Origin: Candidatus Poseidonia sp. | Lineage (GTDB): Archaea; Thermoplasmatota; Poseidoniia; Poseidoniales; Poseidoniaceae | NCBI GenBank assembly: GCA_016778305.1 | Contig: JADHPT010000005.1 | Coordinates: 42,566 to 106,565, forward strand | Length of the DNA stretch: 64,000 nt | Direction: 5' to 3' | Part shown: piece after piece, positions 26,215 to 42,400 of the stretch | Layout of the letters: every line of letters starts with the position of its first letter | Position numbering within the stretch: position 1 is the first letter of the stretch | Notes under the pieces: generated by a model | The model's database searches: none | Told to the model about the DNA's origin: nothing | Seen by the model: the letters and a program-made list of their open reading frames with translations, nothing else | Made by a program: the position numbers and the translations under genes

Positions 26215-26301
26215 TCAAGCCCCTTGACGCACAATTCCGCCGTAACCACAAAGCGACGAGATTTTAGGGGGTGCACCCCTCCCTACCTCGTAGGTGACAC
26301 C

Positions 26302-29300
26302 ATGCAAACCAAATCACCCCGAAAAAGCACGCCATTATTTCTTGTATTTCTGATGCTACTCGCACCTTTTGCAGCAGCCAATGTGACGAATTTTGCCAAT
26401 GGAAACGAAGAAGCAGAAATCGTCATCCGTGACGGAAATCCCCTTGTGAATATCGATGACGGAGCCATCAATCTCCCCGACGGAGAAACGGTGACGGGCG
26501 CCACGATGACCATTTCGACCTCGATGGTTGAGCATGCTGCTCAATCCCGTATAGATTTGGAGAATGGAGCTCAAGAAGGAAAGAACGTATGGGATCCTGC
26601 CGACAACAATCAGCTAACGCAATTTAGCGATATCTCATTATTCCAAATAGAAGTTGATAACACACCCACACCTGTTTCGCTCAAGGCTGAAGGCTTCCTC
26701 ACTGACTTTGAGGGAACGGGTGCAAACTTCAATGACCGGACCGACCCCAACGACATGCCGCTCTCTGGCGCCGGTTGGGAACATGGCCGCTTGAGTGCTA
26801 GCGATACACCTGCAGGATGTGCTTCTGGCGACGAATGCTGGGGAACGAATCTGGTTGATAACAACTATACCGACGATAACGGTGTTGCTGAATTCAAAGT
26901 ATCATTGCATTCCGCAGAACTCTTTGTCGACCCCCTCCTAAAATCAAAGACGGTGACCTTTGATTCCTGGCACAATCTTGAAACAGCCGTAGGGACGCAA
27001 AGCAACACGCTTCGCTTTTTGGACTGCGCATATGTTGAAATCCGCTCGTCTCCCAATCCTGGCTTCCCACCGGACAACAGTGGCTTCTCTCACATCAGCT
27101 TTGACACAAGTGCGAGCACTGGTATTCAATACGGAAGCAATTATGCTCAAGGTGCTGGAGGAAGTCAGAACGGCAAAATCCGGTCTGGCTGCACCGGTCT
27201 GCAAAACGGGTCCGATTGGGAATACGGGCTTGCTGGACAATCCACAAGTTCATCCAATCCAAGCGGTTGGATGTCGCTGGGTATTGATCTCAACGACTAC
27301 ATCGACGAGTATGTACAACTACGCTTCGTGATGCACCATACCGCAAGCACTCTTCCCAACGTCGATGATAATATGTCGGGGTGGTATATTGACAACTTCC
27401 TCCTAGGAGACCTCCTACCTCAAAACGGAAGCATGATCGTTCGCGGCATGACCCCTTCGGTCATGGGTGGCGAAAACCATCCAAACGGTTACGGCCTCCT
27501 TTCACTCGAGGCAGAAACATCCTCAAGTGCCACCTTGACCGTAGACGTTCTCGACACCACAAATAACATCATTGTTGATAAGAACGGGAACCTGATGGAA
27601 GGTCTCAGCGGTGACATCATTGAACTGTGGGACATTGATTCTCAACTCAATCGCGCCGTCAATCTACGGTTTAATTTCAATTCAGGTCCAGATCGCCTTT
27701 CGACTCCAATTCTGCACGGTTTCAGCATCGGGACCCGCGTCGGTACAGGTTTCAATTTCACGTCCATCGGGCCGTCGGCTATCGATGATGGTGTGTGGCA
27801 AACCACTGGTGGCGGCGAGCCGATGATGTATACTCCGGAACTTGTGAAACATCAATTTTCACCATCTCTTAAACGCAGTAAATTCAGCCAGCCGATAACC
27901 TCCATCACACCCTACATCCAAGATGCTTGCACGGAGGCACCCGGCATAGAGATCAATCCAACTGGAAGTATCAACTCAATCCCACTCGACGACGGCGTGA
28001 AGACGAACTTCGCAGCCCCCCTCTTTGGTTTCAGCGCAATATTGTCCTACCAAGGTGCCTGTGACGTCGGAGGAATGTGGTTTGATCTCGAATTTGGACA
28101 TCATGCAGATGATTTACGAATTGACATCGCCAATGATGGTGATGTCGACTACGGCTTCACAGAGCCTGCTTTCGGCATGTTCGGCCGCCAAACTCAATTT
28201 ATTTCAAGTACGGTTGACAACATCAACTACGGTAGCGACCACGCATCCATGACCTTGGGTGTTAACGGAGCTGCACAAGGTGCGTTCTTCCTCCTACCAG
28301 CAGGTGCTGAGGTATCAAGCGCAGAATTGAGTTTTGACCAAGTCAGCATCCGCTCCAACAGCGATGATTCGGAAGGATTCGAACTGTCGCTCATGGCCGG
28401 TTCCCAATCTCAGGATTTAGGAGACATGCCAAACGCAACCCAAATCCTTCCTGAGATGTTGAGTCCGTCGATGCCTCTGAAGGACTCCTTGAACAATTTG
28501 TTGACCAATCCTTCAGTGCCTGGCACTCATCAAGACGAATTTGGACGCTACTGGGTGATGTTCCGACTGGGCGTTGATTCCCCCAATGCTTCTTCTGGAA
28601 CGAGCCTGAAAGTCGTTGACCTCGACATCGTTTACAATTATTCAACGACCTTGAACTCCAACGACGGTCTCGATATTGAATTGAATCAGGGTGTCGCTTT
28701 GTGGACCGGTGGCGCAACGGCTACCGTCCCCATTGCCGTTCATACATCCAGCGGCGGCAGCGTGAAATTCTCTGACTTGTCAGTGACCTCCAGCACGGGG
28801 TACACCAATACCATCTCCCTTACAAATAACCCAGTAGGCCTCTATCCGAGCGGAGATATTTACGAAGTAGTGACCACTCACGTTGTGGATACGGTTACTG
28901 GAACGAGTCTCTCTGAAGCCTGGCTGACCTTTGAAACACCAACTGACTACATCAAACTCGCTTATTCAGACTTCAATGCCTTCAGCGAGGCGAGCGATGT
29001 CAATAATTACGTCACGCTCGAGGCAACCTCATCGGCTAGCGACATCACCAATGGAAAGCAGGTCACTTGGCATTTCCGAGTCAACCCCGCATGGGACGAC
29101 ACCGAAGCAGTTCGTCTCTATGCTGGATTGACGACTACCAATAACGTCAACGGATTGCCGGATGCTGTATTGCTCGATCCTGCCGTAGGAAATGCGGTTG
29201 AAAACGATGCAGGCATTACCATGTTCACGCTTCAAAACAGCATCGGTATCACCCAATCATTGACAGGGGCAGAATCAGGACAAGACATCAATCTCGTCGG

Positions 29301-32142
29301 GCAAATCCGCCTCGAGGATTTGAATCAAGCACCCGACCCATCATCCTACTTCATGGTCCTCGAAATCAAGCACGTCAACACCACTGACGGCAACATCACC
29401 ATCGAATGGGAAGAAGTAGCCAATCGTTCAGGTGTGATCGGCGGCGATTTCAACTGGAACATCGATCTTGGAAGCGCTGCAGGAAGCGAAACCTACCGTT
29501 TCGCAGTGCGAGGTTATGAGGGCGGCGATTTGCTTTGCCCACCTGCCGAATACAATCCCGATGAGACCTGCGGCATTCCCTTTGATATCTCAATTGATAC
29601 CTATGAGCCCAATCTCCTTGACATACAGGTATTGAGCCCCGGTACTGATGCAAACGTCGAAGAAAACTGGAGAACCTTGGTGGACGACACGTGGGTTGTT
29701 CCTCAGCAAAGCCAGAAGATTCGCATGTCCAGTCAGGACCTTCCTAGCCCACCTGCAAGCCTGGACTTGCACATTTGGGTTGAGCACGATCACGACGCTA
29801 ACGACGACGGACAACCCGATGCTGACGAATACATCACCGTCACCATGAACGGTGATGGAGCAGCTCCAACTGCCAACTACACCGGGGAATACAACGACGT
29901 AGCGAACGAAGGACTTGAAGGCAAAGTTTCAATGTGGATTGAGGGCTTTGATCTAGCAGGTAACCCCATTGACGGTGGCTCCTCTGGATTCGATGACGAC
30001 CGCATCACCTACGTCTCCATGACCTCAAAGACACCGGTGATTCGAAATTTCTTCATTGAAGATTCGCAGGGCAACGGCTTCCTGAACTCGAATGCCAACC
30101 AGTGGGACGGCACCTGGAACCAAACCATGTACGCTGGAAATACCTACCACCTCATCATGGAAGCCAGTGACGATAACGGATGGCGTGACGTAGATTTCTT
30201 CCAGTTGAATCTCGACAAAACATCAGATGACATGGTCATCTATTACTTCCCTCGAAATGGAACGGCATGGACCAACAGCCCGCACATCGAAATTGTGGAT
30301 GATGGGACAACCTCACCCTCCATGCTCAACATGGATGGATTTGCGCTCATCGACCCGTTTGAATCAGATTTCATCCTCAACATCCCTATCCGCATCAATT
30401 GGGGGATTGTTGGCATGGACGGTAAGGACCTCGAACCTCGTTTGCAAATGCAAGATCTTGACAATCCACTGTACACCATGCTCTCGGGTGTGCCGGGCCG
30501 ATACATCCAAATTTGGCGATATTATGACGGCATTCAACTTGATTTGCGAACGGATGAAGTCAACAATCTGATGGTCACTCCAACCTTTGAGGATATGAGT
30601 GAACCAACGACACAAGATATCCGTCAAGGATTTGTCTTTGCAGGTGACACCATTCGCTTTAACGGGCAATATGCATTCAGAGAAGGGATTTACAACAGCG
30701 TTTACATCAACCCTGAAGTTGAACTCACGATGGAAATCATCCGCAAAGATGCTACGGAAGATTTCGCTAAGGGCTACATCTCGACACCAGGAGAGACCAT
30801 CACGCACACCTTTACGGGCGGTGTCTTTGACTTCAACATCACAGCCCCGGTCTTCACCAACGAGTATGAATACGAATTCAAACTGATCAACCTACCAGAT
30901 GGGGCAGAAGACTTCACCTCTGCTTTCTGTGCTACCTCGACGTCCTTTGGATGTGAATCGTTCACCCTCAAGGTCGACCGTACGCCACCCGAAGTTGTCT
31001 CCAATACATGGCTCGCCCAAAAGGGTGCATTGGACGCCAGTGCTCCTGATCGCATCATCAGCAATGTCCTCTCGACTGCAGTGTACCATTGCGTGGACAT
31101 GCAGGTCCAAATCAAAGAGCAAGAAGCCATGTTCCCCGGTGACCTGCAGGTCAATTGGATGTTCTACCAAGACAATATCAACGATATCAAATGGAATGAA
31201 TATGTCAAGTACTTCGATGCAGAACCAGGATCACAGACGCTTTCCTTGAGTACCATGAGCGGTGGCTACCTTGCCACAGCAGAGTGCGTTGACCTCTGGC
31301 CAATCACCAATGACATCTACGAACCTGAAGGTGATTGGGACGACATTGAACTCATCTTCTGGGTCTCTGGTGCGGATTCTGCGGGATCAACCGTCCGTTT
31401 GGGCGGTGGACCTCAAGAGGACGGCTCAGTACTTCCTATCTTCTCAGGCCAACCCCAATACAAGTCGGAGTACACCTTCATCCGTGAAGAAGCAAAATTC
31501 GAAATTCAAGATGTCTTGATCGATTCAGAACCACGAGTCGGAGAGAGCATGGATTTGCGCATCAAGGTCAAGAACACCGGAAGTATGGCTGGCACTGCCG
31601 ACTTGGTCATTAAATCCGTCACCGACGGTGGGACGCCGGTTGTTGAACTCGTCGTTCAATCAGATGAATTAGGGATTGCAGAAACGAGCGATTGGATAGA
31701 AGTCACCCTCGAACCTTTCGGTGCTCAAACAACTGGGATGTACTACGTCATCACTCTCAACGGTTCGAGTACTCCTCTCTATGATGGTTCAGTGGAAGGA
31801 GATGCATTCAACGTCCAGGTAGCACTCGAGGAAGATAGTTCTTCGATGCTCCTCATCGTTGTTCTCTTGGTCGCTGTCATCGGCATTCTAGGGACACTGG
31901 TTTTCGTCTTCGCACGTCGTGGAGCAGGTGGAGGTGAATCCATGTTTGATGATGAATACGAGGAAGAAGACGATGCAGGCTACGATGAACAAAAGGTTCT
32001 CGCACAGATTCCAGCAAATGTCGACCCCGAAATGGCACGAGCAATGGAAGCATTCCCTCAATGGACTCAAGAAGAAATCCAAGGCTATTTCGACCAAGGA
32101 TGGAACGTTGAATCTCTGCACGACTGGGTCAACAATCAGTGA
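26302..32142 (+). CDS. Giant secreted/surface protein with C-terminal TM anchor and CARDB-like domain
   Basis: About 1946 aa from MQTKSPRKSTPLFLVFLMLLAPFAAA (signal peptide); C-term EIQDVLIDSEPRVGESMDLRIKVKNTGSMAGTADLVIK (CARDB-like), TM LLIVVLLVAVIGILGTLVFVFARR, acidic cytoplasmic tail. Confidence 0.85.
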   Translation: MQTKSPRKSTPLFLVFLMLLAPFAAANVTNFANGNEEAEIVIRDGNPLVNIDDGAINLPDGETVTGATMTISTSMVEHAAQSRIDLENGAQEGKNVWDPADNNQLTQFSDISLFQIEVDNTPTPVSLKAEGFLTDFEGTGANFNDRTDPNDMPLSGAGWEHGRLSASDTPAGCASGDECWGTNLVDNNYTDDNGVAEFKVSLHSAELFVDPLLKSKTVTFDSWHNLETAVGTQSNTLRFLDCAYVEIRSSPNPGFPPDNSGFSHISFDTSASTGIQYGSNYAQGAGGSQNGKIRSGCTGLQNGSDWEYGLAGQSTSSSNPSGWMSLGIDLNDYIDEYVQLRFVMHHTASTLPNVDDNMSGWYIDNFLLGDLLPQNGSMIVRGMTPSVMGGENHPNGYGLLSLEAETSSSATLTVDVLDTTNNIIVDKNGNLMEGLSGDIIELWDIDSQLNRAVNLRFNFNSGPDRLSTPILHGFSIGTRVGTGFNFTSIGPSAIDDGVWQTTGGGEPMMYTPELVKHQFSPSLKRSKFSQPITSITPYIQDACTEAPGIEINPTGSINSIPLDDGVKTNFAAPLFGFSAILSYQGACDVGGMWFDLEFGHHADDLRIDIANDGDVDYGFTEPAFGMFGRQTQFISSTVDNINYGSDHASMTLGVNGAAQGAFFLLPAGAEVSSAELSFDQVSIRSNSDDSEGFELSLMAGSQSQDLGDMPNATQILPEMLSPSMPLKDSLNNLLTNPSVPGTHQDEFGRYWVMFRLGVDSPNASSGTSLKVVDLDIVYNYSTTLNSNDGLDIELNQGVALWTGGATATVPIAVHTSSGGSVKFSDLSVTSSTGYTNTISLTNNPVGLYPSGDIYEVVTTHVVDTVTGTSLSEAWLTFETPTDYIKLAYSDFNAFSEASDVNNYVTLEATSSASDITNGKQVTWHFRVNPAWDDTEAVRLYAGLTTTNNVNGLPDAVLLDPAVGNAVENDAGITMFTLQNSIGITQSLTGAESGQDINLVGQIRLEDLNQAPDPSSYFMVLEIKHVNTTDGNITIEWEEVANRSGVIGGDFNWNIDLGSAAGSETYRFAVRGYEGGDLLCPPAEYNPDETCGIPFDISIDTYEPNLLDIQVLSPGTDANVEENWRTLVDDTWVVPQQSQKIRMSSQDLPSPPASLDLHIWVEHDHDANDDGQPDADEYITVTMNGDGAAPTANYTGEYNDVANEGLEGKVSMWIEGFDLAGNPIDGGSSGFDDDRITYVSMTSKTPVIRNFFIEDSQGNGFLNSNANQWDGTWNQTMYAGNTYHLIMEASDDNGWRDVDFFQLNLDKTSDDMVIYYFPRNGTAWTNSPHIEIVDDGTTSPSMLNMDGFALIDPFESDFILNIPIRINWGIVGMDGKDLEPRLQMQDLDNPLYTMLSGVPGRYIQIWRYYDGIQLDLRTDEVNNLMVTPTFEDMSEPTTQDIRQGFVFAGDTIRFNGQYAFREGIYNSVYINPEVELTMEIIRKDATEDFAKGYISTPGETITHTFTGGVFDFNITAPVFTNEYEYEFKLINLPDGAEDFTSAFCATSTSFGCESFTLKVDRTPPEVVSNTWLAQKGALDASAPDRIISNVLSTAVYHCVDMQVQIKEQEAMFPGDLQVNWMFYQDNINDIKWNEYVKYFDAEPGSQTLSLSTMSGGYLATAECVDLWPITNDIYEPEGDWDDIELIFWVSGADSAGSTVRLGGGPQEDGSVLPIFSGQPQYKSEYTFIREEAKFEIQDVLIDSEPRVGESMDLRIKVKNTGSMAGTADLVIKSVTDGGTPVVELVVQSDELGIAETSDWIEVTLEPFGAQTTGMYYVITLNGSSTPLYDGSVEGDAFNVQVALEEDSSSMLLIVVLLVAVIGILGTLVFVFARRGAGGGESMFDDEYEEEDDAGYDEQKVLAQIPANVDPEMARAMEAFPQWTQEEIQGYFDQGWNVESLHDWVNNQ

Positions 32143-32151
32143 GGCATCTGC

Positions 32152-32958
32152 ATGACATCCCAGCATGACTGGGCCGACATGGTCTGGACAGACCCTGAAG
32201 GCGGTCGGGTAATTCTTCATGGGACACTCCCTACCGTGGTCTTCCCCAACGCCATGCGTCCCAGAGATCACTGGCATGGATTGGCATTGCTCGACGCCCC
32301 CGACATCGTAGACTTGTGGGTTCAAGAAGAGAAGGACGAGGCTGAATCGCAAGGAATTAACCTCACACATGGTCTTCTTTCTGGAGGGGCATTTGGAAAG
32401 TACCTCGAAGGCATCAACGAACTCGACGACATCCAGGGCGGCAGATTTCCAGACCCGGAACCACGCCGTCTTCAACGAAATGCAGATCGCCATGAGCGGC
32501 CCGTATTCTTCATTGAACCGCTTGCGGATGATGAGGATTGGAGTGACTATCTCACACAAGAGGCGAAAGCGGTTTCTCACTGGAGAAAGTTGCTCGGTAT
32601 GGTCCGCGTCACGAAACGATGGAAACGCTTTGTGAAGGCCCATCTCTTTCGTGCTCAACCTCCCCCAAAGGGACAGTCAACCGATTTGTCAAGTGCCAGT
32701 GTACTGGCAGGGGCTTGGTGGGACATGTGTGAGTGGCTCAGTAATCCCCTTCTTCATCAGCGAAGAGATGAACGCTATGCCGCCCGAATTCGTGGTGCCT
32801 TAGCGTCCTTACGTGAAGATCATGGAGATGATGCGACCCTTCTGGTCGCACTTCACATGCCTCAAAGGCACGGCATGTTGGAAGCGCTTAGCGGTCACCC
32901 TCGGCCAGAGGAGATTTCATCAACACCAACGGACACCGTTGGCATGGAGGAGGAATGA
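32152..32958 (+). CDS. Conserved hypothetical protein, 268 aa
   Basis: Intact ORF, 9 nt after the giant surface protein and abutting the TBP-like gene. Confidence 0.65.
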   Translation: MTSQHDWADMVWTDPEGGRVILHGTLPTVVFPNAMRPRDHWHGLALLDAPDIVDLWVQEEKDEAESQGINLTHGLLSGGAFGKYLEGINELDDIQGGRFPDPEPRRLQRNADRHERPVFFIEPLADDEDWSDYLTQEAKAVSHWRKLLGMVRVTKRWKRFVKAHLFRAQPPPKGQSTDLSSASVLAGAWWDMCEWLSNPLLHQRRDERYAARIRGALASLREDHGDDATLLVALHMPQRHGMLEALSGHPRPEEISSTPTDTVGMEEE

Positions 32959-32959
32959 G

Positions 32960-33502
32960 ATGGCAGTCGGATCGATGGATGTTCGCGTTGAAAATCAACT
33001 CGTTCGCTTCGTCTGTCCGACCCCCGTTAATCACGACCAAGTCGTCAGTGAAGTTGGAGGACAACGGAACAGCGGTGTCGTCATCAAAGCCCTTGACCGC
33101 CCTCGCGCCACCTTGGTGATCGATGAAGAAGGCCGTATTGTTGTTCATGGTACGCACCGCATTGAAGCGGCGCGTGCAGCTGCCAAGGAATTGCTGCTGC
33201 GTTTGGGTATGGATGACAGTGGCCTTGTAGCAGAGATGGGGCCGGTTGTTGCTTCGTTCCAATTTGAACAAAACATCAACCTTCAGGCGATTCCTGCCGA
33301 ATTGACATCAGGCAAAGCAGAATACGACCAACGCCTTGGTTGCACGACAATTCACGATTCACGTCATAACCTAACCGTTCAGCTTTGGCCAAACGGGAAA
33401 GGGATTGTCGCAGATGCTCGTCACCCCAACATGGTGGCGATGGCTGCGGTGTATTGGAAGTCAGTCTTCTCCGAAGGCGGATATTTTGTCGAACGTATTT
33501 GA
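32960..33502 (+). CDS. Divergent TATA-binding-protein (TBP)-like protein
   Basis: 180 aa from ATG at 32960. Two TBP-like half repeats: VRVENQLVRFVCPTPVNHDQVVSEV...RPRATLVIDEEGRIVVHGTHRIEAARAAAKELLLRL and PVVASFQFEQNINLQAIPAELTSGKAEYDQRLGCTTIHDSRHNLTVQLWPNGKGIVADARHPNMVAMAAVYW. Confidence 0.72.
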   Translation: MAVGSMDVRVENQLVRFVCPTPVNHDQVVSEVGGQRNSGVVIKALDRPRATLVIDEEGRIVVHGTHRIEAARAAAKELLLRLGMDDSGLVAEMGPVVASFQFEQNINLQAIPAELTSGKAEYDQRLGCTTIHDSRHNLTVQLWPNGKGIVADARHPNMVAMAAVYWKSVFSEGGYFVERI

Positions 33503-33511
33503 GGCGATGGC

Positions 33512-34393
33512 ATGACCTACGACGGTCCGATTCTGGATAATCACTTCCACCTCAATCGAAACGGACGCTATTTAGACGCCGCAAAAGATTTCCAGCGAGC
33601 AGGTGGAACCGATATCGTCCTGGTTCACTGTCCAGATTTCCGCCAACCACCTGAGACACTCAAAGGCCACACTGAAACCTACGCCGATACACTTGCTATG
33701 GCTGAAGCCGTTCGCCACGAGGTGGGTCTGGGTGTGAGGGTGGTCCTCGGGCCACATCCTGCAGCATTTGCCCATCAGTTTGAACGCTGGGTGGAGGAAG
33801 AAGGAGATGCTGGGCAGGAGCGAGCCATTGAGAATTACCGACATTCCATCGATGCTGCTCTTCATTTTGTTCACGAAGGGAAGGCGCACGCCATCGGAGA
33901 GGTTGGGCGCCCTCACTGGAAGGTTTCAGAGCACATTTGGGACCTTTCCAACATGCTACTGGATGAAACCATGCATCTTGCTGCACAGGAGGGCATTCCT
34001 TTACAATTGCACGTAGAAGGCGAAAGTGATGCAACCTATCCAGACCTTGCCGCTAGAGCCACGAAACAGGGAATGGATTTGGTCAAACTCGTTCGTCACT
34101 ACTCGCCCCCCGATGTGCGTGCGAGCCATACTCACGGCCTGACTCCAAGCGTGTTAATCGGTAAAGGGGCACTCGATCGCCTGATTGAAACACAAGGTGC
34201 CTCGAGCCACGGCTTTTTCTTAGAGACGGATTATATGGACGACCCTCGAAGACCGGGTGCTGTTTTGGGTCCAAAGACGGTGCCGAAGCGAACAAAACAA
34301 CTTCTTGAAGCGGGTATTGATGAGGATGTTCTGTGGACGACGCACCACGAGTTGGCAATGAAAGTCTACGGGGAGCCTCCAGCTGCACCATGA
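33512..34393 (+). CDS. TatD-like/amidohydrolase-superfamily metal-dependent hydrolase
   Basis: ILDNHFHLNRNGRYLDA, VVLGPHP, AHAIGEVGRPHW, IPLQLHVEG, ASHTHG. Confidence 0.8.
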   Translation: MTYDGPILDNHFHLNRNGRYLDAAKDFQRAGGTDIVLVHCPDFRQPPETLKGHTETYADTLAMAEAVRHEVGLGVRVVLGPHPAAFAHQFERWVEEEGDAGQERAIENYRHSIDAALHFVHEGKAHAIGEVGRPHWKVSEHIWDLSNMLLDETMHLAAQEGIPLQLHVEGESDATYPDLAARATKQGMDLVKLVRHYSPPDVRASHTHGLTPSVLIGKGALDRLIETQGASSHGFFLETDYMDDPRRPGAVLGPKTVPKRTKQLLEAGIDEDVLWTTHHELAMKVYGEPPAAP

Positions 34394-35600: not shown

Positions 35601-35662
35601 CACTCCGAAGGGTAACACTCAAAGGCTTGGTGTAGCACACTACACCTGTTATCTACGGAGTG
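35601..35662 (+). promoter_or_regulatory. Nested inverted repeats upstream of the FabI-FAS/PKS-PPTase gene cluster
   Basis: Outer CACTCCG (35601-35607)/CGGAGTG (35656-35662); inner GGTGTAG-CACA-CTACACC (35629-35646), perfect 7-bp arms. Confidence 0.45.
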
Positions 35663-35668
35663 TTTTTC

Positions 35669-36460
35669 ATGATAGGACTGGAAGGTAAAATCGCCTTTGT
35701 TTTCGGGGTGGCCAGTGAGGACTCCATCGCTTGGGCGATCTGTAAACAATTAGCAGCGGCTGGCGTGACCCTCTACCTGGGATACCAGAAGCGATTCATG
35801 AGCAGGGTCTTCAAGCTCAAAGACGAGTTGCCCGCCATTGACGGATTTTATCCACTTGACGTCGCAGGCGACGAATCAACCGCTGAATTCTTCACAGCCT
35901 TTTCAAAAGATCACCCCGGCAAAAAAGCAGATATTCTCATCCACGCCATTGGTTTCGCTCCTCGGGCTTGCTTTGATCGTCCAATTCTCTTTGTGGAGGA
36001 CCAAGATATCAACACCGCCATGACCATCTCTGCTAATTCCCTTCAGCGTTGCCTCAAACATGCCTTGCCGTACCTCAACCCCGGGTCTTCAACGGTCACG
36101 CTCACCTATGCTGCTTCAAATCGATACGTCCCCAATTACGGTATCATGTCCATGGCAAAGGCAGCCCTCGAATGCTGGACACGTGAATTGGCATGCCATC
36201 TCGGTCCAGAAGGGCATCGCATCAATGCCATCTCTTCGGGGCCCATTCGCACCATCGCCGCCGGAGGCATCCCGGGCTTTGATCGGATTCTTGACCACGT
36301 TGAAGCCAATGCTCCTCTACGACGAAACGTCAGCCAAGCAGATGTGGCAGGAGCGACGCTTTGGCTCTCAAGCCCCCTGTCCTCGGGAGTTACAGGGCAG
36401 TGCATTTACGTCGACGCAGGCTATTCGATTACGATGGTACCCGAGAGCATCATGAATTGA
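35669..36460 (+). CDS. fabI: Enoyl-[acyl-carrier-protein] reductase, FabI type (SDR)
   Basis: GKIAFVFGVASEDSIAWAICKQL, HAIGFAPR, NPGSSTVTLTYAASNRYVPNYGIMSMAKAALE (Y-x6-K), GPEGHRINAISSGPIRTIAAGGI, GVTGQCIYVDAGYSI. ORF track starts at GTG 35660; ATG at 35669 preferred. Confidence 0.92.
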   Translation: MIGLEGKIAFVFGVASEDSIAWAICKQLAAAGVTLYLGYQKRFMSRVFKLKDELPAIDGFYPLDVAGDESTAEFFTAFSKDHPGKKADILIHAIGFAPRACFDRPILFVEDQDINTAMTISANSLQRCLKHALPYLNPGSSTVTLTYAASNRYVPNYGIMSMAKAALECWTRELACHLGPEGHRINAISSGPIRTIAAGGIPGFDRILDHVEANAPLRRNVSQADVAGATLWLSSPLSSGVTGQCIYVDAGYSITMVPESIMN

Positions 36461-36469
36461 GGTGAAAGA

Positions 36470-39400
36470 ATGCCACTGACCACAGAAGACGGCAAACCTT
36501 GCGAGGGTATTGACCAAGGTCCTTTCGAACCAATCGCCGTCGTCGGCCTTGGTGCATTGATGCCGGATGCGGATTCAATTGACGCATTCTGGCAGAATAT
36601 CATCGATTCGAAAGTGAGCATAGCGCCACTTCCCGAGGGCCGTTGGCCTGGCCCCATCAAGCACTTTTGGAAAGAAGGTGAGCCCGGCAAGCACACGGAA
36701 GGGTTCACGTATTCCAAAATCGGCGCCCTGGTGAAAGAAGCTGAATTCGACTGGCGTCGCTGGCGTCAACCGCCCGGAACCTTGGCTCAGATTGACCCGT
36801 GCCAACTTTGGGCGGTAACCGTCGCAGCCGATGCTATTGAGCACGCTGGTTACGATGGCGATGAACGCGACATTGACCGAACCCGCACGGGTGTTGTCTT
36901 TGCGAATGCTTTGGGTGGTGAAAACAGGAACCTCTCGAACATTCGTGTCTGGTCCCACCACACGGCTTCATTGGCTCAACAGCATGGCCTGCCTGCATCA
37001 AATGCTGAAGCCTTCACCGAGGACATTATCGAAGGAACACCCCGAGTTAACGAAGACACCATGCCTGGCGAATTGGCCAATGTTGTTTCAGGACGTGTTG
37101 CTAATTTGCTCGATCTTCAGGGGCCCAACCACGCAATGGATGCAGCATGTGCCTCCTCAATGGCTGCTGTCTTGGACGCTTGCCGACTGCTGCAGATGCG
37201 GCAAGTCGACATCATGCTGGCCGGAGCCACTGACCGAACCATGGACCCAGCGACCTTCTCTAAATTTTCTGCAATTGGTGCTCTTTCACCAACGCACTCC
37301 TCTCCCTTTGACGCACGTGCTAACGGATTCGTGATGGGGGAAGGCGCTGGTGTTCTTGTCCTCAAGCGATTGAAGGATGCGATCCGTGATGAAGATGAAA
37401 TATATTCTGTGATTCGAGGTATTGGCGGTTCATCGGACGGGCGTGGAAAAGGCATCACGGCTCCCAGCCAACGAGGTCAAATTCAAGCGATAGCACGTGC
37501 CTACAGCCAAGCAGGATATCCCGCATCAAGTGTTGAATTGGTCGAAGCCCACGGGACCTCAACGAAAGTAGGCGATGCGACCGAACTCTCAACGCTCTCA
37601 CGCCTCTGGACCGGCGTCGGAGGAACAGGAAAGGTAGCAGTAGGCTCAATCAAATCCCAGATCGGCCACCTCAAGGCCGCCGCTGGCATTGCGGGTATCA
37701 TGAAGACGGTCATGGCCCTGCATCACCGCACGATTCCCCCAAGTGCGAACTTCGAAACGCCAAATCCAACCGTGGACTGGTCCAACATCCCCTTCTTTGT
37801 CCCAACCCAGCCGCTTGAATGGCCTCGTCCAGAACATCACCCTCGCCGTGCAGGAGTCTCAGCCTTCGGTTTTGGAGGTACAAATTTCCACGTTGCTTTG
37901 GAAGGTTTTGAGCCCGACTACCACCTTCCACTGGCTTCTGAATGGGATGCACGCTGGAAGGCCTACAGCCGCCAAGAGCAGGCTCAAGCACCCTCCATTG
38001 TGGATGAAAAAGCAACACCTTCGCTCTCTCACGAAGCCATGAAGGCGATTGAAGGAGGAGTCCTTCTGCTCTCCGGAACCTCCGTTGATTCCCTCAGGGA
38101 ACAACTTGCAGCCCTTTCTTTTTCCGGCCCTCTCTTCGATGACGACCCGCGGGGTCGCCGCCTTTCTGAGGCACTTCAAACCTCGAGTTCCGACTTCGAC
38201 GAAACTGCAGCGGCCCGTTTGGCCCTCGTAGCAACTTCGTGGGCAGAATTTACCAAGCGACAAAACTTGGCAATCAAGGCCCTTGACGATCGAGACAAAT
38301 GGGGTTTCCTCCAAGCCCAAGGCGTCTTGGTCAGCACGGATTCACCCATGCCTCCAAAAGCCAAAATCGCCCACATGTATCCCGGTCAAGGCAGCCAATA
38401 CGTCGGAATGACGCACGACCTTGTTCAGCGATTTACCGCACCTGGAGAGGTCTGGAAGCAAGCCGATGAGACGATGGTTGAGGTTTTGGACGGTGAAACC
38501 CTTTCGAGTTTCGTGTTGCGAAGCAACCTCAATGGAGACGAACGCAAGGAAGCCGAGCATAAATTGAAGCAAACTGAATACACTCAGCCCGCCATGCTCA
38601 CTGCTGATTTGGCGATTGAACGAACCCTCAACACCTACGGACATCACCCTGATATGGTTGCAGGGCATTCCCTTGGCGAATATGCTGCTCTGATGTCCTC
38701 TGGTATTCTTGATATGGACGGTGCATTACGTGCCGCAGCAGCTCGGGGTACCGAAATGGGCTCTGTAGAGATTGACGATAAAGGCCTCATGGCCAGCGTA
38801 ACCGCACCTTACGAAGAGGTAGAAACTGTTCTCAATGAAGCAGAAGGATACGTTATTGCCGCCAACAAAAATTCCCCCAAAATGACGGTGATTGCTGGCG
38901 AAACAGCACCGGTTCAAGCCGTCATGGCTTCCTTTGAGGCCAAGGGATTCAACTGTGTCCCTCTTGCCACATCACACGCCTTCCACTCTCGTATCGTTGC
39001 TCCAGCCAATGAGCCGTTGCGCCGCTTTTTGGAAGGATTGAGCATTCGGTGGCCGACCATTCCAATCACTGCCAACGTGGACGGTACCTTCTATCCGACC
39101 GAAGGAGAGGATGCAAAACTCAGTATTCTGGAAAAACTTGCTCCGCAAATGGCTTCTGCAGTTGAATGGACAAAGCAAATCGAGACCATGTATGGCGCAG
39201 GTGCACGCATTTTTGTTGAAGTTGGACCCAAACGAGCCCTGTCGATGTTTGCATCGCAAATTCTCGAAGGTCAACCTCACCTGCCGATCATGTCCAACCA
39301 TCCAAAACAAGGCGGTATTGCCACCTTCTTCACCGCTATCGGGGCCTTGGCCTTGGCTGGACGGCCCCCCCAGTGGCCTGCTCTGGATTCGCAAGCCATG

Positions 39401-42400
39401 CAGGAAGGATTCCGTGCAGGTCCGCTTGAAGCCTATCAAGCAGCCCCGCTCCAAACGCGTTCATCCACCTCCGAACTCGAGTCTCTTCGTACCCGTGCAC
39501 GCCCCTTGCCGAATTCCGGTGGTACGGCAACGATTGCACCCACTGTTTCGGTCGTCCAAACGGGACCACTCGATTCCGATGATGCAACAACAAAGGCCGT
39601 TCAGGCCTATGTTGGTGACCGCATTGCAAAGTTCAGCGGCTACCCCGCATCCTTCTGTCACGGCCACGTACACCTTCAACACGGGCTTGGACTCACACCG
39701 CAAGAAGTTCAGGATGTCATCTCAACGCTTGCCTCCGAGGCTGAAACGGACGCTGAGTTTGACACTTCAACGATTCAAACTGCGGGGGACCTCAACCGTT
39801 GGGTCCGAGCACCGCCCTCTTCGTGGGCGCCCATGGCAACATTGACCGCTCCACCAGCAAGCGCGCAGATGCAACCTGTGACGACGGCCTCAGCACTTCA
39901 AGCACCTGCAATCTCACAACGAGACGTCGACCCCTATGTCGTCAGCGGGATCTCCTTAGGTTTGCCAGGGATGGAGCGGGTCTTTTCAGAAGATACCTTT
40001 GAACAATTGGTACGTGGTGATACCTGCATCAGTGAGGTTTCAGACGAATACAAGCAACGGCTGCTTGACAAGAACATTGTACGCTTGATCAAAGGACGGG
40101 ATGGCTCGGTCAACATGGACCAAGCCAAGGTCTTCGGTGACATCCCTCAACTCGCTGGTTTGAAGGGGGCCTTTGACCTTGCAGAAGAATTTGGAATTGA
40201 CCCGAAGGCGGTTGTAGCCTGGGATATTAGTACCCAACTTGCCGTTGCTGCGGGGCTGTTGGCACTTCGTGATGCGGGCATTCCACTCACTCCAGTTGAA
40301 CAAGTAGGGAAGGGTGGACTTCGCCTGATTCGCAACTGGCAGGTACCACAACTCCAACGAGATCGCACTGGAATCGTCTTTTCTTCATGCTTCCCCGGCT
40401 TGCAGATGGGTGTGAAGCACGCAAAGACAGATGGCGATGACGGCGAAGGCCGTTTCGACCGAAGGTACCTCTTCCAAACCCTCAACATGGGGCATTCCCA
40501 ATTCGCCCAATACACGGGTATTCGTGGACCGAATACCACCATTAACCTCGCTTGTGCTTCAGCAACAGCAGCCTTCGGTGTTGCCGAGGACTGGTTGGAT
40601 GCTGGACGAGTGGACCGTGTGGTCATCATCAGCGGGGACGATGTCACAGGAGATGACTTGTGGGAATGGATTGCAGGTGGCTTTGCTGCCTCAGGCGCAG
40701 CCGCCACGGGGAATGTTGTGGAAGAAACAGCCCTGCCCTTTGACCGCAGGAGAAACGGCTTGGTTCTCGGCATGGGGGCAGCAGCCTTCGTGGTTGAACG
40801 GCATTCAGAAGCAGAGCAACGTGGTGTTCAACCCATTGCTGAATTCCTTGGTTCAACAACAGCCAATTCAGCATATCACGGGACACGTCTTGACGTTGAG
40901 CACGTAGGTCAAGTCGTGAATGGCTTTGTCAGTGACATGGAACAACGATGGGGCATTAACCGTCACGAAATTGCTCCGAAGACGGTCTTCTTTTCCCATG
41001 AAACCTACACTCCCGCCCGCGGTGGCTCGGCTCAGTCCGAAGTCAAAGCCTTGAGGAATACATTTGGAGACTCCACCGACAAATTGGTGATCGCCAATAC
41101 CAAAGGGATCACCGGCCATCCCATGGCGGTTGGTATTGAGGACGCAAGCATGTTCTATGGCTTGCTCACGCGTCGTATTCCACCCATTGCGAACCACAAG
41201 GAGAGGGACCCTGAATTGGGTGATTTGAATCTCTCCAAGGGCGGTGATTATCCACAACTCGAATACGGGTTGCGTTTTGCTGCTGGGTTTGGATCACAAA
41301 TCGCCCTCTCACTCATGCGTCGTTGGCCCATTGAAGGCGAGCGCATTAACGGTGCAAAATTGCTTGCCTGGACGCGTCGTCTCGCCGGAACCGACGAGGT
41401 CGTTATGCGAGTGTTGCAAAATAAATTGGTCGCCTACGTCGATGGTGAAAACAACCTCCACGGAGGTATTCAAGGCGATGTGTGGCCTCCCACTGCAGCG
41501 TGGGAAGGCTTGCCATCACCAACCGAGCCCTCCGCTCCTGAACCAACACCCAAGGCCATCACTTCAACCCCCGAACCAACACCCGTTCCAATGCCTCCAC
41601 CAGCGCCTGCAACAGCAACTCCGGTCAGCGATGAAGGCATGGTAGGCGTGGTCATTGAGGTCGTCGTCAACCATACTGGCTATCCCGCAGACTTTGTGGA
41701 ACTAGACCAGGACCTCGAAGGTGAATTGGGTATTGACACCGTCAAACAGGCTGAAATCATGGCCGATATCCGAGACCGATTTGACCTTCCTATCGATGAA
41801 GACTTTGTCCTGTCGGATTACCCGACCTTGAACCACATGATTGGTTATATCCAACAGATGCAAGGCAGGGTACCGCCTACGCTTCCCTCAGCCCCGGCCT
41901 CAGTGGAGCCAGCACCAACTCCTCCGGCAACGCCTTTAGCGGTACCTGCAGCGATACAAGCACCAGCGATTATCGATGATGCAGACATGACGGCAACCGT
42001 GGTTGAGGTTGTGGTTGAGCATACGGGCTATCCGGCAGATTTCATCGAATTGGATCAAGACCTCGAGGGCGAATTGGGCATTGATACTGTCAAACAAGCA
42101 GAAATCATGGCCGATATCCGAGACCGATTCAATTTGCCAATCGATGAAGACTTTGTCTTGTCGGATTACCCGACCTTGAACCACATGATCGGATACATCC
42201 AACGCATGAGCGGTGGAGATTCGCCATCAAGCGCTCCGGCCTTGCCAACACCGCCTGTCGTTGAATCGGCACCAGAGCCAAGCATTGAACCTGCCAAGGC
42301 AGCAGCACTTCCTCAGGCATCAAACCCCGATATTGAAGCAGTTTTGATCGAGGTTGTCGTCGATCACACGGGCTATCCTGCTGATTTCATAGAGCTCGAC

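What the first reader, a model, noticed from the sequence alone, without database searches (positions are those of the whole stretch)
32960..33502. Divergent second TBP-like protein
The 180-aa length and two-fold repeat match archaeal TBP. The second half (VASFQFEQNINLQAIPAELTSGKAEYDQRLGCTTI...) tracks the TBP core, but the first half and several DNA-contact positions look altered (ALDRPRATLVIDEEGRIVVHG). It may be a specialised TBP paralogue, or a TBP-fold protein with a new role, located between a hypothetical gene and a TatD-like gene.
Basis: partly seen in the sequence, partly recalled or inferred. Interest (0 to 1): 0.72.

Follow-up and report, generated by a model that had tools for sequence, protein, structure and literature searches.

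The report
Degenerate second TATA-binding protein, TatD-linked
A marine archaeon, and nearly every sequenced species of its order, carries beside its normal TATA-binding protein a second one that has kept the saddle fold but lost most of the residues used to grip DNA and recruit the transcription machinery, so a core transcription factor seems to have been turned to another use.

Summary
Window 32960-33502 (+) encodes a 180-aa protein with two TBP repeats (Pfam TBP 6e-11). Its AlphaFold model (pLDDT 92.5) matches only TBPs among strong PDB hits. The genome has a canonical TBP elsewhere, so this is a second copy. It is single-copy in 186 of 194 genomes of the order (34/34 good ones) and under strong purifying selection (dN/dS about 0.04).

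It is not a near-TBP. Three of the four DNA-intercalating Phe are gone; one is always Asp/Glu. The lobe-2 Asn and Thr contacts and the EPEQF TFB-contact loop are lost. One aromatic remains (Trp/Phe143).

It sits in a tight trio, hypothetical - TBP2 - TatD-like hydrolase, seen in 21/21 order loci examined. Elsewhere in the phylum the same TatD-like gene follows a TBP, canonical or divergent, in 20 of 80 loci and never in another arrangement. TBP2's closest profile relative is one of those TatD-linked TBPs. TBP2 is therefore best read as the TatD-linked ancestral TBP copy, freed by duplication and neofunctionalised.

A general TATA/TFB role is unlikely. A role as nucleic-acid- or protein-binding saddle for the operon's TatD-like hydrolase is my best mechanism, but it is inferred. 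I found no earlier description.

The parts
32960..33502 (+). TBP2: 180-aa divergent two-repeat TBP paralogue (ATG 32960, stop TGA 33500-33502)
   Evidence: Pfam TBP 6e-11; AF2 and Foldseek give TBP fold; single-copy orthologues in 186/194 genomes of the order
32978..33208 (+). TBP2 lobe 1 (aa about 7-83): R16 invariant; intercalating-Phe positions are N37 (never aromatic) and D55 (Asp/Glu in 22/22); minor-groove Thr is H63 (invariant)
   Evidence: alignment A1, column read-out; register fixed by the P48...G58...HG64 stretch
33239..33478 (+). TBP2 lobe 2 (aa about 94-173): contact Asn replaced (P95), stirrup EPEQFPG shortened to D-x-R-L-G, last Phe kept as W143 (Trp in f1, Phe in f2), Thr position variable (A151)
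32152..32958 (+). gene0: order-specific 268-aa protein upstream, ends 1 nt before the TBP2 start; probably a very divergent TraB/PrgY-fold protein whose GTAHV-like His is Pro
   Evidence: found in 34 order genomes and 0/111 other phylum genomes sampled; AF2 pLDDT 93; Foldseek top hit is a Tetrahymena complex IV subunit, E 1.3e-3, prob 0.99; hhalign to TraB profile 24.7 against a shuffled maximum of 16.3
33512..34393 (+). TatD-like metal-dependent hydrolase, 9 nt after the TBP2 stop, metal-site residues intact (HxH, GE, QLH, RHY, ETD)
   Evidence: Pfam TatD_DNase 1.7e-23; conserved columns in A4; phylum-wide family, 135/145 genomes

Best explanation
TBP2 descends from an ancestral Thermoplasmatota TBP gene that lay directly upstream of a TatD-like hydrolase gene. 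After a duplication, an unlinked copy kept the general TATA/TFB role, and the TatD-linked copy stayed in place and was neofunctionalised. SHOWN by sequence: TBP homology and predicted fold, paralogy, order-wide retention under purifying selection, the tight colinear trio gene0-TBP2-TatD, TBP->TatD order elsewhere in the phylum, and loss of most DNA-intercalating and TFB-contact residues. INFERRED: it no longer bends TATA DNA or recruits TFB. Its saddle, with invariant R16, D/E55, H63 and aromatic 143 on what in TBP is the concave face, is used as a non-bending nucleic-acid-binding (or protein-binding) module. The partner proposed is the co-encoded TatD-like hydrolase, as the TBP-like N-domain of RNase HIII holds the substrate for a nuclease. 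Gene0, probably a catalytically dead TraB-like fold, would be a third partner. My estimates: descent and loss of the general TBP role about 0.85; partnership with TatD about 0.35.
For: TBP homology and fold. Canonical TBP elsewhere in the same genome; 21 further order genomes also carry one. Retention: 186/194 genomes, 34/34 good ones, one copy each, 21/21 genera; median dN/dS 0.044 within the genus. Operon: the trio is colinear on one strand in 21/21 loci from both families although flanking genes differ between groups, with a 1-nt and a 9-nt gap in the window. Ancestry: of 80 TatD-centred loci outside the order, 20 have a TBP upstream on the same strand (16 within 160 bp, in 11 families) and none in another arrangement. 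TBP2 best matches the f11 TatD-linked divergent TBP: hhalign score 76, E 2e-11, against at most 58 for canonical TBPs. A tree branch of 95/81 separates TBP2 plus f11-linked from all other TBPs. Shared derived features are lobe-1 Phe loss, x-H-G, and stirrup-2 Leu. Residue losses; signature positions from PMC7221094. TBP2 diverges like its operon partners (33-61% identity; gene0 31-52%, TatD 40-68%) and much faster than canonical TBP (73-94%). The RNase H3 N-domain precedent is PMC4132731.
Against: Because TBP->TatD linkage predates the divergence and includes canonical TBPs, adjacency alone does not prove that TBP2 works with TatD. One aromatic contact (W/F143) persists, and N12 in most members, so some DNA grip is possible. 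The tree grouping rests on long branches. TBP2's pI (mostly 5-6.6) does not itself suggest strong nucleic-acid binding, although the canonical TBPs here are more acidic still. No coordinates of the model were available, so placing R16/D55/H63/W143 on the concave face rests on alignment to known TBP contacts.
Confidence: 0.6

Rival explanations
1. TBP2 is a promoter-selective general factor that works with the order's own divergent second TFB (TFB2), forming an orthogonal TBP2-TFB2 pair for a gene subset, as proposed for multiple TBP/TFB in haloarchaea and for viral TBP/TFIIB pairs.
For: The order carries a second TFB of about 350 aa in 10 of 11 sampled order genomes. It keeps zinc ribbon, B-reader and GRSI, but its PRT Thr and its BRE-recognition helix are changed, and nothing close to it exists in the rest of the phylum sample (518-535 bits against at most 221 outside the order). 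One aromatic and the saddle remain in TBP2.
Against: Three of four intercalating Phe and the acidic stirrup are lost. The f11 genomes with the TBP2-like TatD-linked TBP have no TFB2-like protein. TBP2 evolves faster than TFB2 (33-36% against 50-51% between distant members), and is linked to TatD, not to TFB2. Co-occurrence is uninformative because both are order-wide.
Confidence: 0.18
2. TBP2 is a regulator of canonical initiation: a decoy that pairs with canonical TBP, TFB or RNA polymerase and titrates it, without its own promoter function.
For: It keeps the TBP saddle fold and is conserved order-wide. Paralogues of basal factors turned inhibitors are known in archaea (TFS4, PMC5715097, seen).
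Against: TFB-contact residues are missing (PMC7221094), and the operon context is a hydrolase rather than a stress or regulatory gene.
Confidence: 0.12
3. TBP2 has become an enzyme- or ligand-binding-like protein: the conserved polar set R16, D/E55, H63, H136 and D123 forms a new binding or active site in the saddle, unrelated to nucleic acid.
For: R16 and H63 are invariant, D/E55 occurs in 22/22, and D123 and H136 are nearly invariant. Such polar conservation is unusual for a TBP saddle.
Against: I know of no enzyme with this fold and these residues, D55 is not shared by the f11 relative (Leu there), and the residues are not shown to be close in space.
Confidence: 0.07
4. Not a TBP descendant: an unrelated repeat protein that resembles TBP by convergence.
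For: Only 13-19% identity to TBPs of known structure and weak NCBIfam scores.
Against: Significant profile matches in both repeats to TBPs only, TBP-only strong fold matches, and synteny with TatD-linked true TBPs plus an intermediate sequence family.
Confidence: 0.03

Closest known systems
Archaeal TATA-binding protein (Pfam PF00352; structures 1ais, 1pcz, 1mp9, 2z8u)
   Same: Two TBP repeats, predicted saddle fold, length 180 aa, collinear profile match
   Different: Three of four intercalating Phe, the lobe-2 Asn/Thr contacts and the EPEQF stirrup are lost; new invariant Arg16, Asp/Glu55, His63; fast evolution; a canonical TBP is present in the same genome
TatD-linked divergent TBP of other Thermoplasmatota (family f11; L210, L269, L271, L273, L277)
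   Same: Directly upstream of the same TatD-like gene; lobe-1 Phe lost, x-H-G instead of x-T-G, stirrup-2 Phe to Leu; best profile match to TBP2
   Different: Keeps a full-length stirrup 2 and Phe at the last position, has Leu at position 55, and lacks the gene0 partner
Multiple TBPs of haloarchaea and other archaea (e.g. TbpD/TfbA of Halobacterium, PMC2121645)
   Same: Extra TBP copies in one archaeal genome
   Different: Those are studied as promoter-selecting general factors (PMC2121645); TBP2 has lost the residues for that
TBP-like N-domain of RNase HIII (PMC4132731)
   Same: TBP-related fold used outside transcription, next to a nuclease activity
   Different: RNase HIII is a single-chain fusion; TBP2 is a free two-lobe protein co-encoded with a TatD-like hydrolase, and function is only inferred
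Eukaryotic and viral TBP-related factors, e.g. KSHV ORF24 (PMC12529657) and viral TBP/TFIIB pairs (PMC7221094)
   Same: Diverged TBP domain with altered DNA- or TFIIB-contact positions
   Different: Cellular archaeal gene, order-wide; no co-diverged TFB across the whole TBP2-like family

Membership tests
TBP superfamily (fold and homology) | Two tandem TBP repeats recognisable by profile | tested here: met
   PF00352 6e-11, two stretches; A1 profile hits TBP chains only at significant E
TBP superfamily (fold and homology) | Saddle fold | tested here: met
   AF2 pLDDT 92.5; 44 best PDB hits all TBP, TM 0.71-0.81
General (TATA-binding, TFB-recruiting) archaeal TBP | Four intercalating Phe, two per lobe | tested here: not met
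   N37, D55, stirrup Leu/Arg, W143 in P0001; family-wide pattern
General (TATA-binding, TFB-recruiting) archaeal TBP | Minor-groove Asn and Thr in both lobes | tested here: not met
   N12 kept in most members, but T to H63, N to P95, T to A151; contact positions from general TBP knowledge
General (TATA-binding, TFB-recruiting) archaeal TBP | Acidic C-lobe stirrup residues contacting TFB Arg and Thr (C.L3.2, C.L3.4 of PMC7221094) | tested here: not met
   EPEQFPG is shortened to D-x-R-L-G; one acid (D123) remains, the second position is lost or variable
General (TATA-binding, TFB-recruiting) archaeal TBP | Sole or interchangeable TBP of the cell | tested here: not met
   Canonical TBP elsewhere in the own genome and in 21 sampled order genomes; interchangeability itself not testable
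General (TATA-binding, TFB-recruiting) archaeal TBP | Binds and bends TATA DNA, supports transcription | not testable with these tools
   needs EMSA and in vitro transcription
TatD-linked divergent TBP lineage (f11 type) | Gene immediately upstream of the TatD-like gene, same strand | tested here: met
   9-nt gap in the window; 21/21 order loci
TatD-linked divergent TBP lineage (f11 type) | Common descent apart from canonical TBPs | tested here: inconclusive
   hhalign 76 against at most 58, branch 95/81, but long branches
TraB/PrgY family (for gene0) | Significant TraB profile match and GTAHV-type motif | tested here: not met
   no Pfam TraB hit in 20 members; only fold and sub-threshold profile similarity

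The most novel reading that the evidence does not exclude
A cellular TATA-binding protein that has left transcription. In the order, probably Ca. Poseidoniales (Marine Group II), the TatD-linked TBP copy has become a dedicated saddle subunit of a conserved gene0-TBP2-TatD machine acting on nucleic acid. The neighbouring Thermoplasmatota preserve the intermediate stages, from a canonical TBP next to TatD, through a divergent TatD-linked TBP, to TBP2 with gene0.
Probability: 0.3. Interest if true: 0.75.

Novelty: new variant of a known kind. Interest (0 to 1): 0.6.

Why it matters
TBP is needed for transcription initiation in all archaea and eukaryotes, so a cell-encoded TBP kept under purifying selection without most of its DNA- and TFB-contact residues is a natural experiment in how a core factor can be repurposed. 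If the organism is Marine Group II, these are among the most abundant archaea of the surface ocean (PMC6461757) and nearly every species would carry it. The phylum preserves intermediate stages, which makes the path from general TBP to TBP2 directly testable. It also warns annotators that a 'TATA-binding protein' hit in these genomes is not necessarily the general factor.

Tried and rejected
(1) 'TBP2 is just the genome's only TBP, badly diverged': rejected, canonical TBP on another contig. (2) 'Invention of this order only': softened, related TatD-linked divergent TBPs exist in family f11. (3) 'Same as the sister family's second TBP' (f3): rejected on synteny (different conserved neighbourhood) and profile (hhalign 44). 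(4) 'Virus- or phage-derived TBP': no relatives in the phage records or viral contigs. (5) TBP2-TFB2 pairing: kept only as a rival, because f11 has TBP2-like proteins but no TFB2. (6) Gene0 as a known enzyme: no convincing Pfam or PDB sequence match; only a weak TraB link. (7) TatD adjacency as proof of functional coupling: rejected as proof, since canonical TBPs share it. (8) A scan of genome contigs with A1 failed for lack of conserved stretches. The one scan run, with an f11 TatD-like protein, named those organisms only as Thermoplasmata or Candidatus Thermoplasmatota MAGs. (9) The first TraB alignment contained wrong frames and was redone.

Full report
OBSERVATION. The ORF at 32960-33502 (+) is exactly as reported: 180 aa, ATG start, flanked by a hypothetical gene (32152-32958, ending one base before) and a TatD-family gene (33512-34393, nine bases after). 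Pfam TBP is the only family it matches (6e-11). Archaeal TBP models of NCBIfam match far below their cut-offs, so it is TBP-like but not an ordinary TBP. A profile of 22 orthologues (A1) finds TBPs first among PDB chains, in both repeats. The AF2 model from that alignment has pLDDT 92.5, and its 44 best structural matches are all TBPs.

PARALOGUE, NOT THE MAIN TBP. The same genome has a canonical TBP on another contig (210 aa, L004:3601-4233), and 21 other genomes of the order also carry one. TBP2 was found in 186 of 194 genomes of the order, one copy each, in all 21 genera and in 34 of 34 good-quality genomes. One of the misses (G039) has gene0 at a contig end, with TBP2 expected just off the contig. 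Within the window's genus the median dN/dS is 0.044. It is a maintained gene, not decay.

ORGANISM. Two families with genomes of about 1.5-2.2 Mb and 1.1-2.1 Mb (most about 1.9 and 1.4 Mb) and a smaller-genome sister family (f3) fit Ca. Poseidoniales (Marine Group II) with its two families (my inference; compare PMC6461757). The f11 relatives are MAGs titled Thermoplasmata or Candidatus Thermoplasmatota archaeon.

WHAT HAS CHANGED. Using known TBP contact positions (general knowledge; the conserved loop Phe and the acidic C-lobe stirrup pair are described in PMC7221094), the family columns read as follows. Lobe-1 stirrup Phe is N/S/T/V/Q/A at position 37, never aromatic. Lobe-1 second Phe is Asp or Glu 55 in all 22. 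Lobe-1 minor-groove Thr is His63, invariant. Lobe-2 Asn is P/G/D/E. The lobe-2 stirrup EPEQFPG is shortened to D-x-R-L-G with no Phe. Lobe-2 second Phe is Trp or Phe 143 in all. Lobe-2 Thr is variable. Arg16 is invariant. Position 55 is unambiguous because the stretch P-R-A-T-L-V-I-D-x-x-G-R-I-V-V-H-G aligns without gaps to P-K-x-x-x-L-x-F-x-S-G-K-x-V-x-T-G. Three of four wedges and the TFB-contact loop are therefore gone.

OPERON. In 21 of 21 loci from both families the trio gene0-TBP2-TatD is colinear and tightly packed, while flanking genes differ between two groups of genera. Gene0 is order-specific (34 order genomes, 0 of 111 elsewhere in the phylum sample). It has no convincing Pfam or PDB sequence match. 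A confident model (pLDDT 93, pTM 0.90) points weakly to the TraB fold: the top Foldseek hit is a Tetrahymena complex IV subunit, a complex reported to hold a TraB-family protein (PMC10060162; that the matched chain is that protein was not verified). A colinear profile alignment to the order's true TraB proteins scores 24.7 against at most 16.3 for 20 shuffles. The TraB-type GTAHV histidine would be proline here. The TatD-like protein keeps its metal-site residues.

ANCESTRY. The TatD-like gene is phylum-wide (135 of 145 genomes). In several other families it lies directly downstream of a TBP. In 80 TatD-centred loci from outside the order, 20 had a TBP upstream on the same strand (16 within 160 bp, four at 0.4-1.6 kb), and none had a TBP downstream or on the other strand. 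In most lineages that TBP is canonical. In f11, f12, f28, f32 and f33 the TatD-linked TBP scores well below the canonical ones (43-111 against 204-232 bits for full-length ones; the f28 copy is short). The f11 ones share with TBP2 the loss of the lobe-1 Phe, an x-H-G in place of x-T-G, and Leu for the stirrup-2 Phe. By profile comparison TBP2 is closer to f11-linked TBPs (score 76) than to canonical TBPs (at most 58), other divergent TBPs (at most 54) or the order's own canonical TBP (30). A tree groups TBP2 with f11-linked on one side of a 95/81 branch, with a long-branch caveat. The sister family's second TBP lies in a different conserved neighbourhood and is not the same gene.

FUNCTION. 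The loss of contacts, a divergence rate matching its operon partners rather than the canonical TBP, and the stable operon argue that TBP2 left general initiation. The partnership with the TatD-like hydrolase is the best mechanism I can offer, with RNase HIII's TBP-like substrate-binding domain as precedent (PMC4132731). The linkage itself is inherited and cannot prove it. A TBP2-TFB2 pair is possible, since the order has its own divergent TFB, but f11 has the TBP2-like protein without any TFB2. No earlier description of TBP2 or of the TBP-TatD linkage was found in the open-access library; subscription papers were not searchable.

VERDICT. It is a new variant of a known kind, interest 0.6. The decisive experiments are DNA/TFB binding assays and pull-downs with the operon partners.

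Noticed in passing
L054:1381-3078 (G069:C152, genus g21): Canonical TBP with an in-frame insertion of roughly 350-370 aa between the two lobes (581-aa frame); Pfam finds only TBP in it. In G184 of the same genus only the N-lobe is found, in a 489-aa frame. Could be a real domain insertion or an assembly effect.
   Followed up: partly
L004:3601-4233 and canonical TBPs L035-L053: Canonical TBPs of this order carry a lineage-specific insertion of variable length (about 20-60 aa) early in lobe 2 (after ATYALHYPEDY...), absent from the sister family f3.
   Followed up: partly
G000:C30:71506-72390 (L122:5495-6391, - strand): Order-specific second TFB (TFB2, about 350 aa) with conserved zinc ribbon and GRSI but changed BRE-recognition helix (TLRGLLRIL for TIRNRYKEL); nothing close elsewhere in the phylum sample.
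   Followed up: partly
L115:5416-5964, L117:5194-5742, L119:5235-5783, L120:2851-3399 (family f3): The sister family has its own second, different divergent TBP, in another conserved neighbourhood.
   Followed up: partly
L198:2851-3961 (G305): Two TBP genes in tandem, one canonical and one divergent, in another Thermoplasmatota family.
   Followed up: no
window 32152-32958: Gene0 looks like a very divergent, active-site-less TraB/PrgY-fold protein, conserved and confined to the order.
   Followed up: partly
window 26224-32142: 1972-aa apparent secreted or surface protein upstream of the trio with no Pfam match.
   Followed up: no
window 35660-45274: SDR/enoyl-reductase gene followed by a 2934-aa multidomain protein that reads like a polyketide or PUFA synthase (by eye; only the SDR was checked with Pfam), adjacent to the trio in part of the order.
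   Followed up: no
G000:C1:66099-66431: Weak match (30 bits) to the N-terminal part of the TFB2 profile in a 401-aa frame: possible third TFB-like protein.
   Followed up: no
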